DNA from: an uncultured Lachnospiraceae bacterium | GTDB taxonomy: Bacteria > Bacillota > Clostridia > Lachnospirales > Lachnospiraceae | NCBI GenBank assembly: GCA_902793685.1 | Contig: CADBEN010000002.1 | Coordinates: forward strand, 1 to 64,000 | Length of the DNA: 64,000 nt | Reading direction: 5' to 3' | Shown: positions 550-5,372 of the stretch, in pieces | Layout of the letters: each line of letters opens with the position of its first letter | Numbering within the stretch: the stretch's first letter is position 1 | Position numbers and translations under genes: made by a program | Notes under the pieces: generated by a model | Told to the model about the DNA's origin: nothing | What the model saw: only the letters and a program-made list of their open reading frames with translations | Database searches by the model: none

Positions 550-600
550 TTTGTCTCGGTCTCCTTTCGTGAATGCGGCATGAATGTCCCTGAGTGTATG

Positions 601-739
601 GACCGTTCCATGTGTAAAGGCCGCTCCAGGGCTTAGACCGTTCCAGGGGCTTAGACCGTTCCCTGTACTTAGGCCGTTCCATGTGCTTAGGCCGTTCCAG
701 AGCTTAGACCGTTCCAGAGCTTAGACCGTTCCAGGGGCC
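601..739. repeat. Tandem 17-18 bp repeat
   Basis: About seven imperfect units of the type CTTAGACCGTTCC plus four or five variable bases, with a period of 17 or 18 bp. They lie between the MBL remnant and the DIP1984-family gene. On the minus strand every unit carries a TAAG. The array ends next to an AT-rich, promoter-like stretch (741-775) with two TATAAT-like hexamers ahead of the plus-strand gene. No reading frame of interest is present. Confidence 0.8.
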
Positions 740-792
740 TGGATTGTGATATAATTATATTATAATTGACCGGAACAGTAGGAGGTAAAACG

Positions 793-1248
793 ATGAAGCT
801 TGCGGAAGCATTACAGGAAAGAGCCGATCTGAACAGGAAGATCGAGGAACTTCGGAGAAGACTTGCGAATGTCATCCTTGTCCAGGAGGGCGAGGAGCCG
901 GCGGAAGAGCCCGCCGAGCTGCTGAAGGAGCTGAACGCTGCCATTGCCCGTCTTGAGTATCTCATGGCCGCCATCAACCTGACCAACTGCAGGACGAAGG
1001 CAAACGGCATGACGCTGACTGCGCTGATTGCCAGAAAGGATGCGCTGATGGTAAAGCTGTCCTCCTACCGTGACCTGGTGTACAGCGCCTCGCAGAACAC
1101 GAACCGTGCCAGAGGCACGGAGATCAAGGTGAAATCCCTCCTCAAGGCCGGTGACCTGCAGAAGGTCGCGGACCAGATCGCGAAGGAAGTCCGGGAGCTG
1201 GACAACCTCCTGCAGGAGACCAACTGGAAGACAAAGCTGATCGAGTGA
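793..1248 (+). CDS. DIP1984 family protein
   Basis: A 151-residue protein of the DIP1984 family (historically linked to septicolysin). It is all-helical and rich in Lys/Glu, reading MKLAEALQERADLNRKIEEL at the start and ending TNWKTKLIE, with the family-typical GEEPAEEPAELLKEL and ASQNTNRARGTEIK stretches. The biochemical role of the family is unsettled. The ATG at 793 is preferred over an upstream in-frame ATG at 766 because GGAGG stands 8 nt before it. An AT-rich promoter-like island precedes it. The gene is followed after 2 nt by a structured RNA, then a terminator, so both are probably one transcription unit. Family membership is firm; function is open. Confidence 0.88.
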   Translation: MKLAEALQERADLNRKIEELRRRLANVILVQEGEEPAEEPAELLKELNAAIARLEYLMAAINLTNCRTKANGMTLTALIARKDALMVKLSSYRDLVYSASQNTNRARGTEIKVKSLLKAGDLQKVADQIAKEVRELDNLLQETNWKTKLIE

Positions 1249-1250
1249 TG

Positions 1251-1447
1251 ATAAGATGGTAGTCGTACGGATGCGCATATCAGGCGGCAGCAGCCTAAGC
1301 TGCACTCCGGTTGTGCTGACAGAGCAGGCACGTGGGTTCGAATCCCCCAGGATCGTAAAGCTCCGATCGGGTACAACCGTATTGTAATCGTTTATCGCTT
1401 ACTACCGGATATGAGCCGTATGACGAGGGTGTGGACAGGGGACTTAT
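1251..1447 (+). ncRNA. Structured RNA with tRNA-like module (YrlA/Y-RNA-like candidate)
   Basis: Paired ends and nested helices are visible. ATAAG 1251-1255 pairs with CTTAT 1443-1447. 1262-1270 pairs with 1416-1424 (9 bp, one G-U). CATATC 1276-1281 pairs with GATATG 1408-1413 across an asymmetric loop. Inside lie hairpins 1287-1303 and 1384-1402, and a 7-bp helix CGGTTGT 1308-1314 with ACAACCG 1373-1379. That helix encloses a short D-arm-like hairpin (1315-1325), a T-arm-like hairpin (GGGTTCGAATCCC, 1334-1346) and a hairpin 1351-1368. The TTCGAAT loop copies the tRNA T loop, but the arm order is not that of a tRNA. This fits the published idea of YrlA RNAs: a long stem plus a tRNA-mimic module. 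The YrlA assignment is inference; the folding is seen directly. Confidence 0.65.
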
Positions 1448-1462
1448 AAGAACTTTTTCCGG

Positions 1463-1493
1463 GAACCGACCCCTTATGGGGTTGGTTCTTTTA
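1463..1493 (+). terminator. Rho-independent terminator after the structured RNA
   Basis: An 11-bp stem, GAACCGACCCC with GGGGTTGGTTC, closes a TTAT loop and is followed by TTTTA. One pair is G-T. It lies 15 nt after the closing helix of the structured RNA and would end the DIP1984-RNA transcript. Confidence 0.9.
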
Positions 1494-1544
1494 TATTAAG
1501 CGAAAAGGAAACTCTCCCTTCGTAGACTGGAGAAGTATCCAGCC

Positions 1545-2092
1545 CGCGGTACGAATGGCGAGGGAGAAAACCAGGCATACCCTTCGTATGAGGAGAAAGC
1601 TTGCTGGTCGCGATACGGATGTGTGACGCGAAATGGAAACCCGCTTCCCGCCCCCGAATCGCGACCGGGAAGCTGCCGGGAAATTCAGGTTTTACACTGT
1701 GTATACAAGTCTTTCCCTGCCATTCAGTGTATCGCAGCCGGGGAAGCTCTGTTTTGGACACTGAACACCCCCGAAAAGCGCCGTCACTCAGTGTATCGCA
1801 ACCCGGAAGCTCCTATTCGATACACTGTGTATACAAGATTTTACCCCTATTCAGTGTATCGCGGCCTGAGAAGCTCTGTTTCGGACACTAAACACCCCCG
1901 AAAAGCGCCACCACTCAGTGTACTACGGCCAAGAAACATCCGGTTCTGACACTGTGTATACAAGATTTTCGCTACCCTTCAGTGTATCGCGGCCGGGGAA
2001 GCTCTGTTTCGGACACTAAACACCCCCGAAAAGCGCTGCCGCTCAGTGTACTACGGCCAGAGAACACCTGGCGCCCCGCTGTGTATACAAGA
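1545..2092. repeat. Array of the 64/65-bp minisatellite family
   Basis: This non-coding stretch holds two parts. At about 1547-1620 lies a diverged unit in inverted orientation (minus strand reads GTATCGCGACCAGCAAGCTT). From about 1653 forward copies follow, with TCAGTGTATCGC-type cores at 1724, 1788, 1851, 1915, 1979 and 2043, a step of 63-64 bp. Odd and even units differ, so a 127-129 bp higher-order period is also seen; CTGTGTATACAAG recurs at about 1696, 1823, 1951 and 2079. The core GTATCGCGRCC plus AAGCT is shared with the array at 4617-5372. No gene is supported here. Confidence 0.85.
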
Positions 2093-2594: not shown

Positions 2595-3068
2595 ATGTCA
2601 GCGGATCGTTTCATCCAGCTTGTGGAAGAAAATCAGGGTTTTGAGTTCTATCAGGCTTATCAGAACGATGTCGACCACGTTCTGGGCGGCAAGGGCGGAA
2701 CCTATTGGTACGTGATCATGAAAAAGGGCAAGGTTCAGGAAATGTACCGTGGAGAGAAAAAGGGTGACACCTGGGAAGACACTTATATCAAGGGTACAAA
2801 GACCAAAGCCATGCCCGCCGGCAGCACGATAACGCGCATCGCCGAAAAAGCATATCTCATGCAGGAAGAAAAGTGGGTGAAGGGCAGGAATCCGAAAGTG
2901 ATCGAAGACGCACATCCGCATTATCATTATGTGTACGGTTTCGGCGACAAGGGCCTGGATATCTCCCAGAAATACGGTGTCACGATCGCATTTTCAGATA
3001 TCAAGGATCCTGCCACCGCATTCCATCTGAGATATCTTTACACCGGCAAAGATGTGGAACTGCCATAA
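2595..3068 (+). CDS. Hypothetical protein
   Basis: A 157-residue soluble protein that I do not recognise. It starts MSADRFIQLVEENQGFEFYQ at ATG 2595, 6 nt after GGAGA. It has no signal peptide or membrane segment. A central WYVIMKKGKVQEMYRGE stretch looks like beta structure, and a histidine-rich motif HPHYHYVYGFGD lies near residue 110. It is one of only two plus-strand protein genes in the window. The last codons and the stop are the first unit of a 35-bp tandem repeat that continues downstream, so alleles of different length could alter the 3' end. Confidence 0.7.
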   Translation: MSADRFIQLVEENQGFEFYQAYQNDVDHVLGGKGGTYWYVIMKKGKVQEMYRGEKKGDTWEDTYIKGTKTKAMPAGSTITRIAEKAYLMQEEKWVKGRNPKVIEDAHPHYHYVYGFGDKGLDISQKYGVTIAFSDIKDPATAFHLRYLYTGKDVELP

Positions 3069-3240
3069 TTCTTTCCCCAGGCAGGGATGCTGAACTGCCT
3101 GGGCTCCTTTCCTGGCAGGGATGCTGAACTGTCATATCTCCTTTCCCAGGCAGGGATGCTGAACTGCCATATCTCCTTTCCCAGGCAGGGATGCTGAACT
3201 GCCATATCTCCTTTCCCAGGCAGGGATGCTGAACTGCCCG
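3051..3240. repeat. 35-bp tandem repeat that includes the gene's stop codon
   Basis: Units begin GATGYKGAACTG at 3051, 3086, 3120, 3155, 3190 and 3225, spacing 34-35 bp. The first unit is the end of the coding sequence (codons for DVELP, then TAA). Later units repeat it with a few changes, so the array is a duplicated gene tail. Confidence 0.9.
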
Positions 3241-4616: not shown

Positions 4617-5372
4617 TACCATTCGTATCGCGACCAGCAAGCTTCCTCGCCTTACGGAGGGTATGATTGATTCTCCCGCCCTACCATTCGTATCGCGACC
4701 AGCAAGCTTCTCCGTCTTACGGAGGGTATGATTGATTCTCGCACCCCACCATTCGTATCGCGACCAGCAAGCTTCTCCGCCTTACGGAGGGTATGATTGA
4801 TTCTCCCGCCCCACCATTCGTATCGCGACCAGCAAGCTTCTCCGCCTTACGGCGGGTAAACTAGCTTTACGCGCCCCACCATTCGTATCGCGACCAGCAT
4901 GCTTCCTCGCCTTACGGCGGGTATGATTGGTTTTCACGCCCCACCATTCGTATCGCGACCAGCAAGCTTCCCCGCCTTACGGCGGGTATGATTGGTTTTC
5001 ACGCCCCACCATTCGTATCGCGACCAGCAAGCTTCTACGCCTTACGGAGGGTATGATTGATTCTCGCACCCCGCCATTCGTATCGCGACCAACAAGCTTC
5101 CCTGCCTTACGGCGGGTATGATTGATTCTCCCGCCCCACCATTCGTATCGCGACCGGCAAGCTTCTCCGCCTTACGGAGGGTATGATTGGTTTTCGTGCC
5201 CCACCATTCGTATCGCGACCAGCAAGCTTCCCCGCCTTACGGCGGGTATGATTGATTCTCCCGCCCCACCATTCGTATCGCGACCGGCAAGCTTCTCCGC
5301 CTTACGGCGGGTATGATTGATTCTCCCGCCCCACCATTCGTATCGCGCCCAGCATGCTTCCCCGCCATAGAA
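4617..5372. repeat. Twelve-copy 65-bp minisatellite array
   Basis: ATTCGTATCGCGACC recurs at 4621, 4686, 4751, 4816, 4881, 4946, 5011, 5076, 5141, 5206, 5271 and 5336: an exact 65-bp period, the last unit partial. Each unit carries the core ATTCGTATCGCGACCAGCA, an AAGCTT, a short dyad (CCCGCC-TTAC-GGCGGG or CTCCG-N5-CGGAG) and a GTATGATTG tail. The dyad arms often vary together, which points to selection for a hairpin or to gene conversion. The period is not a multiple of three, so frame changes in every unit and it is not coding. The array fills the space between the VOC gene and the terminator of the ammonia-lyase. Confidence 0.95.

What the first reader, a model, noticed from the sequence alone, without database searches (positions are those of the whole stretch)
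793..1493. DIP1984-family gene followed by a tRNA-mimicking structured RNA: possible YrlA-type Y RNA locus
Seen in sequence: beginning 2 nt after the stop codon, a segment of about 197 nt has paired ends (1251-1255/1443-1447), a 9-bp helix (1262-1270/1416-1424), a 6-bp helix (1276-1281/1408-1413) and a 7-bp helix (1308-1314/1373-1379). The last encloses a T-arm copy with loop TTCGAAT and a short D-arm-like hairpin; a strong terminator follows. Known: bacterial YrlA RNAs combine a long Ro/Rsr-binding stem with a tRNA-like module. Inferred: this RNA is a YrlA-like or new tRNA-mimic RNA, and the DIP1984 protein may bind, process or protect it. No rsr (Ro60) or rtcB gene is in the window, so a system built on DIP1984 alone would be new.
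Basis: partly seen in the sequence, partly recalled or inferred. Interest (0 to 1): 0.85.

Follow-up and report, generated by a model that had tools for sequence, protein, structure and literature searches.

The report
Structured RNA paired with DIP1984 gene
Directly behind a small bacterial gene of unknown function (DIP1984) lies an uncatalogued folded RNA with a tRNA-like arm, and nearly every DIP1984 gene looked at, from five bacterial phyla, has it too, so the two probably form one protein-RNA system whose job is still unknown.

Summary
The RNA is real and widely conserved. The DIP1984 gene (793-1248) is followed by a ~183-nt structured RNA (1258-1440). It lies behind the gene, same strand, in 77 of 80 related loci; the other three contigs end within 75 nt of the stop. 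In two overlapping genome draws (299 and 291) 24 of 25 genomes with a DIP1984 gene over the family cut-off have it, as do actinobacterial, cyanobacterial, enterococcal and Moraxellaceae records. A tRNA-type T-arm is common but dispensable (51 of 78). No Rfam family, YrlA included, matches above chance. In three Acinetobacter records the pair sits between rtcB and rtcA, the operon that holds Rsr and Y RNA in Salmonella. Best reading: a DIP1984 ribonucleoprotein that works like Ro/Y RNA without being one. RNA and pairing are close to certain; binding and function are inferred.

The parts
793..1248 (+). DIP1984 family protein, 151 aa (PF20935 DUF6847); predicted bundle of four long helices
1258..1440 (+). 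Conserved structured RNA, no Rfam family
   Evidence: Found in 77 of 80 related loci plus the window; models R1 and R2; no Rfam match at gathering score
1263..1270 (+). P1, 5' strand (pairs with 1416-1423)
   Evidence: 8 of 8 pairs with two-sided changes, 96.6% of cells paired
1416..1423 (+). P1, 3' strand
1276..1281 (+). P2, 5' strand (pairs with 1408-1413)
   Evidence: 100% of cells paired, 3 of 6 pairs with two-sided changes
1408..1413 (+). P2, 3' strand
1283..1303 (+). P3: hairpin 1287-1291/1299-1303 whose loop pairs back as an H-type pseudoknot, 1283-1285/1293-1295
   Evidence: Hairpin: 3 of 5 pairs with two-sided changes; pseudoknot: 100% paired, 1 of 3 pairs with a two-sided change. A second RNA subtype keeps the topology with other letters
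1313..1331 (+). P4 hairpin 1313-1316/1328-1331; loop bases 1322-1325 pair with 1360-1363 (pseudoknot)
   Evidence: Loop pseudoknot 95.9% paired; central pairs GC:21/AU:16 and GC:28/AU:9. The P4 stem itself is only 73.3% paired in this alignment, which I put down in part to misalignment
1334..1346 (+). T-arm-like hairpin, loop TTCGAAT (1337-1343)
   Evidence: Stem 100% paired in the 37-sequence alignment; 51 of 78 RNAs have a T-arm-like hairpin
1360..1363 (+). 3' strand of the loop pseudoknot
1424..1440 (+). G-rich 3' segment (GAGGG.G.G...GGGG type), kept in most aligned copies, including actinobacterial and cyanobacterial ones; not recognised in the Moraxellaceae copies
   Evidence: Alignments; Moraxellaceae matches end at model position 163-165 of 181
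1461..1490 (+). Intrinsic-terminator-like hairpin with T tail
   Evidence: a terminator-like site within 120 nt follows the RNA in 22 of 78 loci, against 30 of 600 random stretches of the same loci

Best explanation
DIP1984 and this RNA are the two parts of one module. The RNA is probably transcribed as the 3' part of the DIP1984 message (it starts 10 nt after the stop codon), folds with P1/P2 closing its ends into a compact, doubly pseudoknotted molecule, often carries a tRNA T-arm, and is held by the elongated helical DIP1984 protein as a ribonucleoprotein. By inference from the Acinetobacter operon, where the pair lies between rtcB and rtcA with RNase Z and RtcR, this particle works like the Ro/Rsr-Y RNA particle: it helps recognise, guard or route damaged or misprocessed tRNA-like RNA, with the T-arm as docking or decoy element. 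Shown: the RNA, its covariation, its near-strict adjacency to DIP1984 across phyla, the operon context in Acinetobacter. Inferred: co-transcription and release, direct binding, the role in tRNA or RNA damage.
For: RNA in 77 of 80 loci, the three misses having 8, 75 and 64 nt of contig after the stop. RNA in 24 of 25 genomes with an over-cut-off DIP1984 gene in two draws; every RNA hit of these draws lies behind a DIP1984 match except G320 (contig begins 186 nt before the RNA) and G455 (a tRNA-Arg). Also behind DIP1984 in Streptomyces, Streptantibioticus, Mycobacterium, Mycolicibacterium, Picosynechococcus, Psychrobacter, Acinetobacter and Enterococcus records. Covariation. Median distance from stop to RNA 12 nt in the 56 loci with complete 5' ends. 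RNA and protein distances correlate over 76 loci, r = 0.87, best of 1000 permutations 0.23. Acinetobacter operon; in Salmonella rsr and Y RNAs lie in the rtcBA operon (PMC7790460, passages). T-loop letters vary as in tRNA; the one false positive of the model among the genomes is a real tRNA, matched over its T-arm.
Against: RtcB is not enriched with DIP1984 in Bacillota (10 of 18 carriers against 163 of 299) and is absent from the window's genome, so the RNA-repair role rests on one genus. No rtc gene lies in the loci around the other DIP1984 genes and no gene family recurs in more than 6 of the 80 loci. The T-arm is missing in 27 of 78 RNAs by the test. The protein is slightly acidic on average (net -1.6, range -6 to +4), and 3kdq, its only clear fold relative, has no known function. 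G386 (93 bits) has no recognisable RNA, and G011 and G097 each have a second over-cut-off gene behind which the model finds none, even with filters off, so counted by genes the pairing is 24 of 27. The three Acinetobacter plasmid copies are missed with default filters and weak without. No transcript or binding data.
Confidence: 0.42

Rival explanations
1. A mobile toxin-antitoxin or anti-phage module in which the RNA restrains or is restrained by DIP1984, like type III toxin-antitoxin pairs in logic though not in anatomy.
For: Patchy distribution (17 of 299 and 9 of 291 genomes over the cut-off); 354 plasmid records with a match, 342 of them Acinetobacter; plasmids of 11-36 kb with BrnT/BrnA or RelE/ParE genes in the stretch shown; one IMG/VR contig with the gene followed by two tandem RNAs; two linked gene copies in G011 and G097.
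Against: In the window the RNA follows rather than precedes the gene and is one long fold, not repeats; no nuclease family among the Pfam matches listed; in three Acinetobacter records it is part of an RNA repair operon.
Confidence: 0.22
2. The RNA is a cis-acting element in the 3' untranslated region of the DIP1984 message: the protein binds it to control its own mRNA, or it stabilises the mRNA.
For: Same orientation, median distance 12 nt, terminator-like site right behind it in the window.
Against: Two pseudoknots, a tRNA-type T-arm and conservation across phyla seem more than a stabiliser needs (judgement, not tested); the distance varies up to 322 nt; two tandem RNAs behind one gene in L110; in Acinetobacter the RNA lies inside an operon before rtcA.
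Confidence: 0.17
3. The RNA is the active part (a ribozyme or a mimic used by the translation machinery) and DIP1984 only its chaperone.
For: Long conserved stretches without a supported helix, such as the one after 1363 up to P2; T-arm; G-rich tail.
Against: No catalytic hallmark recognised by eye; no Rfam family matches the RNA at gathering score in the window or ten loci.
Confidence: 0.1

Closest known systems
Bacterial Y RNA YrlA with Rsr (Ro60 ortholog), Rfam RF02553
   Same: ncRNA next to the gene of a candidate partner protein; stem joining the ends; tRNA T-arm module; found within rtc RNA repair operons (here only in the three Acinetobacter records)
   Different: No RF02553 match; 183 nt with two pseudoknots; T-arm dispensable; D and acceptor arms not shown; partner is the helical DIP1984, not a TROVE protein
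rsr-yrlBA-rtcBA operon of Salmonella (PMC7790460, passages)
   Same: The Acinetobacter order rtcR / RNase Z - rtcB - orf - DIP1984 - RNA - rtcA puts a protein-plus-ncRNA pair in the same kind of operon
   Different: RNA not matched by the YrlA model and protein not by TROVE; in the Bacillota loci examined the pair has no rtc gene beside it
tRNA
   Same: T-loop consensus and, by eye in many copies, a short hairpin just before it, like an anticodon arm
   Different: ARAGORN and Rfam call no tRNA at the RNA (also L008, L018, L085, L111, L114, L118); no acceptor stem found
PDB 3kdq (DIP1984 family protein of Corynebacterium diphtheriae)
   Different: No function given; only its title was seen

Membership tests
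YrlA / bacterial Y RNA | Match to the Rfam YrlA covariance model (RF02553) | tested here: not met
   No match at gathering score nor in the E up to 10 list for 600-2000; in the own genome only a 30-bit match elsewhere, below the 69-bit gathering score, of a kind that 7 of 14 control genomes also give
YrlA / bacterial Y RNA | Large stem pairing the 5' and 3' ends | tested here: met
   P1 and P2, covarying; whether such a stem binds Rsr is not testable here. Feature as stated in PMC8394870 (passages)
YrlA / bacterial Y RNA | tRNA-like domain with D, T and acceptor arms | tested here: inconclusive
YrlA / bacterial Y RNA | Length 90-150 nt | tested here: not met
   183 nt in the window (1258-1440); feature from PMC8394870 (passages)
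YrlA / bacterial Y RNA | Companion Rsr/Ro60 (TROVE) protein | tested here: not met
   Own genome has no TROVE match; TROVE in 6 of 299 genomes, 1 of the 18 with DIP1984
tRNA / tmRNA | ARAGORN or Rfam call at the RNA | tested here: not met
Type III toxin-antitoxin | Repeated antitoxin RNA upstream of the toxin gene (recalled, from no call) | tested here: not met
   RNA lies downstream; one match per locus in the 77 loci; two units only in L110
Type III toxin-antitoxin | Toxicity neutralised by the RNA | not testable with these tools
   needs expression tests
DIP1984 family (NF038048 / PF20935) | Score over the curated cut-off | tested here: met
   161.9 against 70 bits; 154.6 against 27 bits

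The most novel reading that the evidence does not exclude
A class of pseudoknotted ncRNA with a tRNA T-arm, spread over at least five bacterial phyla and not in Rfam, forms an obligate ribonucleoprotein with DIP1984: a second, unrelated invention of the Ro/Y RNA principle, which mobile elements spread and which Acinetobacter has built into its RtcB-RtcA RNA repair operon.
Probability: 0.4. Interest if true: 0.93.

Novelty: categorically new. Interest (0 to 1): 0.86.

Why it matters
A covarying structured RNA found in five phyla that no Rfam 15 model catches would be a notable addition, and it gives a first lead on DIP1984/DUF6847, a protein with a solved structure since 2009 and no function (annotated 'septicolysin' in some plasmid records). 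If it is a Ro/Y-like particle, it is a second solution to the same problem and makes the open question of what ncRNPs do in RNA repair operons testable in harmless carriers such as Picosynechococcus or Streptomyces.

Tried and rejected
A candidate hairpin 1351-1355/1364-1368 (139 of 185 cells paired, mostly one-sided variation). A GGUAG/CUACC pairing 1258-1262/1402-1406 (163 of 185 cells, but its well-paired columns hardly vary). Cis-regulation of one common downstream gene: no gene family recurs in more than 6 of 80 loci. A statistical link to RtcB or TROVE in Bacillota: none seen. rtc genes near other DIP1984 genes: none among 114 loci at E 1e-3 (the search finds the known rtcB, RNase Z, rtcR and rtcA of L122, but the unclassified ORF of L111 does not match that of L122). 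Fold relatives of the protein other than 3kdq are at the level of common helical arrangements and are not taken as relatives.

Dropped rows and weak points: a 15.8-bit minus-strand match in L020 treated as noise; G455's 27-bit match is a tRNA-Arg; L029, whose RNA has a different 3' end, left out of A1; L029 and L073 left out of the distance comparison. A1 holds 37 of the 41 close sequences listed. The subtype-II rows were chosen by a pattern that asks for ATCT[CT] or GCCTC (L015 dropped as a wrong match), so the 5' pseudoknot arm is in part selected for; 22 of 24 have the first stem, one of them (L077) only as TCTC/GGGA, and L076 and L081 were missed by the fixed register. Controls draw random stretches from the same loci, RNA included. 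One search used a bad pattern; only its lengths were used. R2 was trained on a set holding L085, so for Streptomyces the unbiased score is R1's 28.0 bits. Sub-cut-off DIP1984-like genes G158, G358, G405 and G555 have no RNA. Window 600-2000 at E up to 10 has a chance-level snoU83D match at 1242-1270 that overlaps the first bases of the RNA (16.2 bits against 55).

Literature: full-text searches for DIP1984 (one paper, not opened), septicolysin + RNA (18 papers, not opened), YrlA/Rsr, DUF6847 (none), RtcB/Y RNA/Ro60, RtcB + Acinetobacter, Y RNA mimicry and RNA repair. I saw the listings, and passages of PMC7790460 and PMC8394870; nothing seen reports this RNA. A 2016 survey of RNA repair systems by Burroughs and Aravind, cited in PMC7790460, could not be read: the DOI that I recalled for it is not held. 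A mention there, or in closed or newer papers, cannot be excluded.

Full report
What was claimed and what is there. The ORF 793-1248 is a DIP1984 family protein. The conserved RNA that follows spans 1258-1440, with 9 nt between the stop codon and its first base, and a terminator-like hairpin lies at 1461-1490. Alone, the sequence folds no better than shuffles (z +0.57), so one sequence could not prove the structure; relatives do.

Relatives. A genome scan with the protein gave 219 confirmed relatives, of which the tool kept the best 80. Iterated nhmmer from the window RNA found the RNA once in 77 of these 80 loci, on the same strand; the matches begin 7-322 nt after the stop. The other three loci end 8, 75 and 64 nt after the stop. 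Among the 56 loci whose match has a complete 5' end the median distance is 12 nt, and it is at most 20 nt in 39.

Structure. On 37 close sequences (A1) the 33-pair model, with two pseudoknots, has 95.5% of cells paired, 21 pairs with changes on both sides and 157 such cells, against means of 84.9%, 12.1 and 42.1 in shuffles; none of 500 shuffles reaches these values. The count of further pair types is less decisive (49 of 500 reach it). Sliding the partners drops pairing to 35-45%. A free search for covarying columns puts pairs of the same helices among its top ranks, next to some pairs that make no helix. P4 is the weakest helix (73.3% of cells). A second RNA subtype keeps the P3 pseudoknot with different letters: 22 of 24 selected rows have the first stem, changed from TCTC/GAGA to TCTT/AAGA in two, and 21 have both stems, the second in 13 forms.

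tRNA-likeness. 51 of 78 RNAs have a hairpin of three or more pairs with a 7-nt loop beginning TTC; the other loop letters vary as in tRNA (fourth G 46 / A 5; fifth A 47 of 51; sixth free; seventh T 48 of 51). 47 of 78 have the full consensus hairpin, against 29 of 2000 random 200-nt stretches of the same loci. It is a real but dispensable T-loop element. The one clear false positive of the model in the genome searches, in G455, is a tRNA-Arg.

Co-occurrence. In 299 genomes of the phylum DIP1984 is over the cut-off in 17 and the RNA model hits 17. Sixteen coincide. G223, the seventeenth with the gene, has a 24-bit RNA found on its locus; the seventeenth RNA, in G220, lies beside a DIP1984 gene cut by the contig end. 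In 291 genomes of the class, 9 are over the cut-off; 6 of them have an RNA hit, and G376 (46.8 bits) and G372 (18.5 bits) show one with filters off. G386 does not. The window's genome is in both draws, so 24 of 25 distinct genomes have the pair. Counted by genes it is 24 of 27: G011 and G097 each have a second over-cut-off gene without a model match, even with filters off, though by eye a diverged copy follows it in G011. RNA without the gene: only G320, whose contig begins 186 nt before the RNA. Four sub-cut-off relatives of the protein have no RNA.

Breadth. With R2, RNAs follow DIP1984 in Mycobacterium branderi (91.1 bits), Streptantibioticus (83.5), Mycolicibacterium (61.3), two Picosynechococcus (45.4 and 44.2), Enterococcus faecium (27.9), Psychrobacter (22.8), the Acinetobacter rtc operon (22.0) and three Acinetobacter plasmid records (18.2-18.6 with filters off, E about 5e-4; not found with default filters). 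Streptomyces scores 28.0 with R1, which had not seen it. Two loci from Paludibacteraceae MAGs (Bacteroidota) are among the 77. The Moraxellaceae copies are weak and rest on position plus the P1/P2 core.

Operon context. In three Acinetobacter records the order is rtcR (opposite strand), RNase Z/BN, rtcB, an unclassified ORF, DIP1984, the RNA, rtcA (RtcB confirmed by Pfam). The unclassified ORF of L111 has no Pfam match and does not match that of L122. Two of the records are filed as phage but carry aroA and pepD and look bacterial. [quoted passage not shown] The control is sobering: among Bacillota carriers RtcB is no commoner than elsewhere (10 of 18 against 163 of 299), and the window's genome has neither RtcB nor TROVE.

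Protein. AlphaFold gives a confident bundle of four long helices (mean pLDDT 95.3). The only clear fold relative is 3kdq, of unknown function. Seventeen columns are invariant in 41 sequences, among them R23, Q31, E32, G33, E38, N65, D83, R105, E110, R134 and Q141, which suggests a defined surface; yet the net charge is near neutral to acidic, which does not announce an RNA-binding protein.

Judgement. That this is a genuine structured RNA coupled to DIP1984 I hold at about 0.97. That the two bind each other, about 0.6. That the particle works like Ro/Y RNA in tRNA damage or RNA repair, about 0.4. It is not a YrlA RNA by the tests made. For newness: no Rfam 15 match at gathering score in the window or in ten relatives; at E up to 10 only a chance-level match touches the window RNA's first bases and none lies on the RNA in four relatives; nothing was seen in the open papers searched. 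Closed and very recent literature could not be checked.

Noticed in passing
window 1694-2064: Tandem array, period 128 (2.9 copies; also read as period 64, 1720-2050), downstream of the terminator-like hairpin.
   Followed up: no
window 621-736: 17-bp tandem repeat (CCGTTCCAGGGCTTAGA, 6.6 copies) just upstream of the DIP1984 gene.
   Followed up: no
window 4618-5366: 65-bp tandem array of 11.5 copies (90% matches); by eye its unit resembles sequence near 1570-1630.
   Followed up: no
window 3057-3238: 35-bp tandem array, 5.2 copies, at the end of and behind the ORF 2595-3068, which matches no Pfam or NCBIfam family at E 0.001.
   Followed up: no
L111, L112: Records named Acinetobacter phage MD-2021a carry rtcR-rtcB-rtcA, pepD and aroA and look like bacterial chromosome contigs.
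   Followed up: partly
L110:5542-6012: An IMG/VR contig has two matches of the RNA in tandem behind one DIP1984 gene; by eye a tRNA-like sequence follows that ARAGORN does not call.
   Followed up: partly
L114 (G011:C35), L115 (G097:C4): Two DIP1984 genes about 2 kb apart; the model finds one RNA, and by eye a diverged second copy follows the other gene in L114.
   Followed up: partly
L130:1253-1801: A distant, sub-cut-off DUF6847-like protein without the RNA (G555), next to a peptidase-like ORF (by eye): the wider family may include RNA-free members.
   Followed up: no
L121:1-2286: In Picosynechococcus PCC 7003 a VWA-domain protein, a MerR-type regulator and a nucleotidyltransferase lie upstream of DIP1984 on the other strand.
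   Followed up: no
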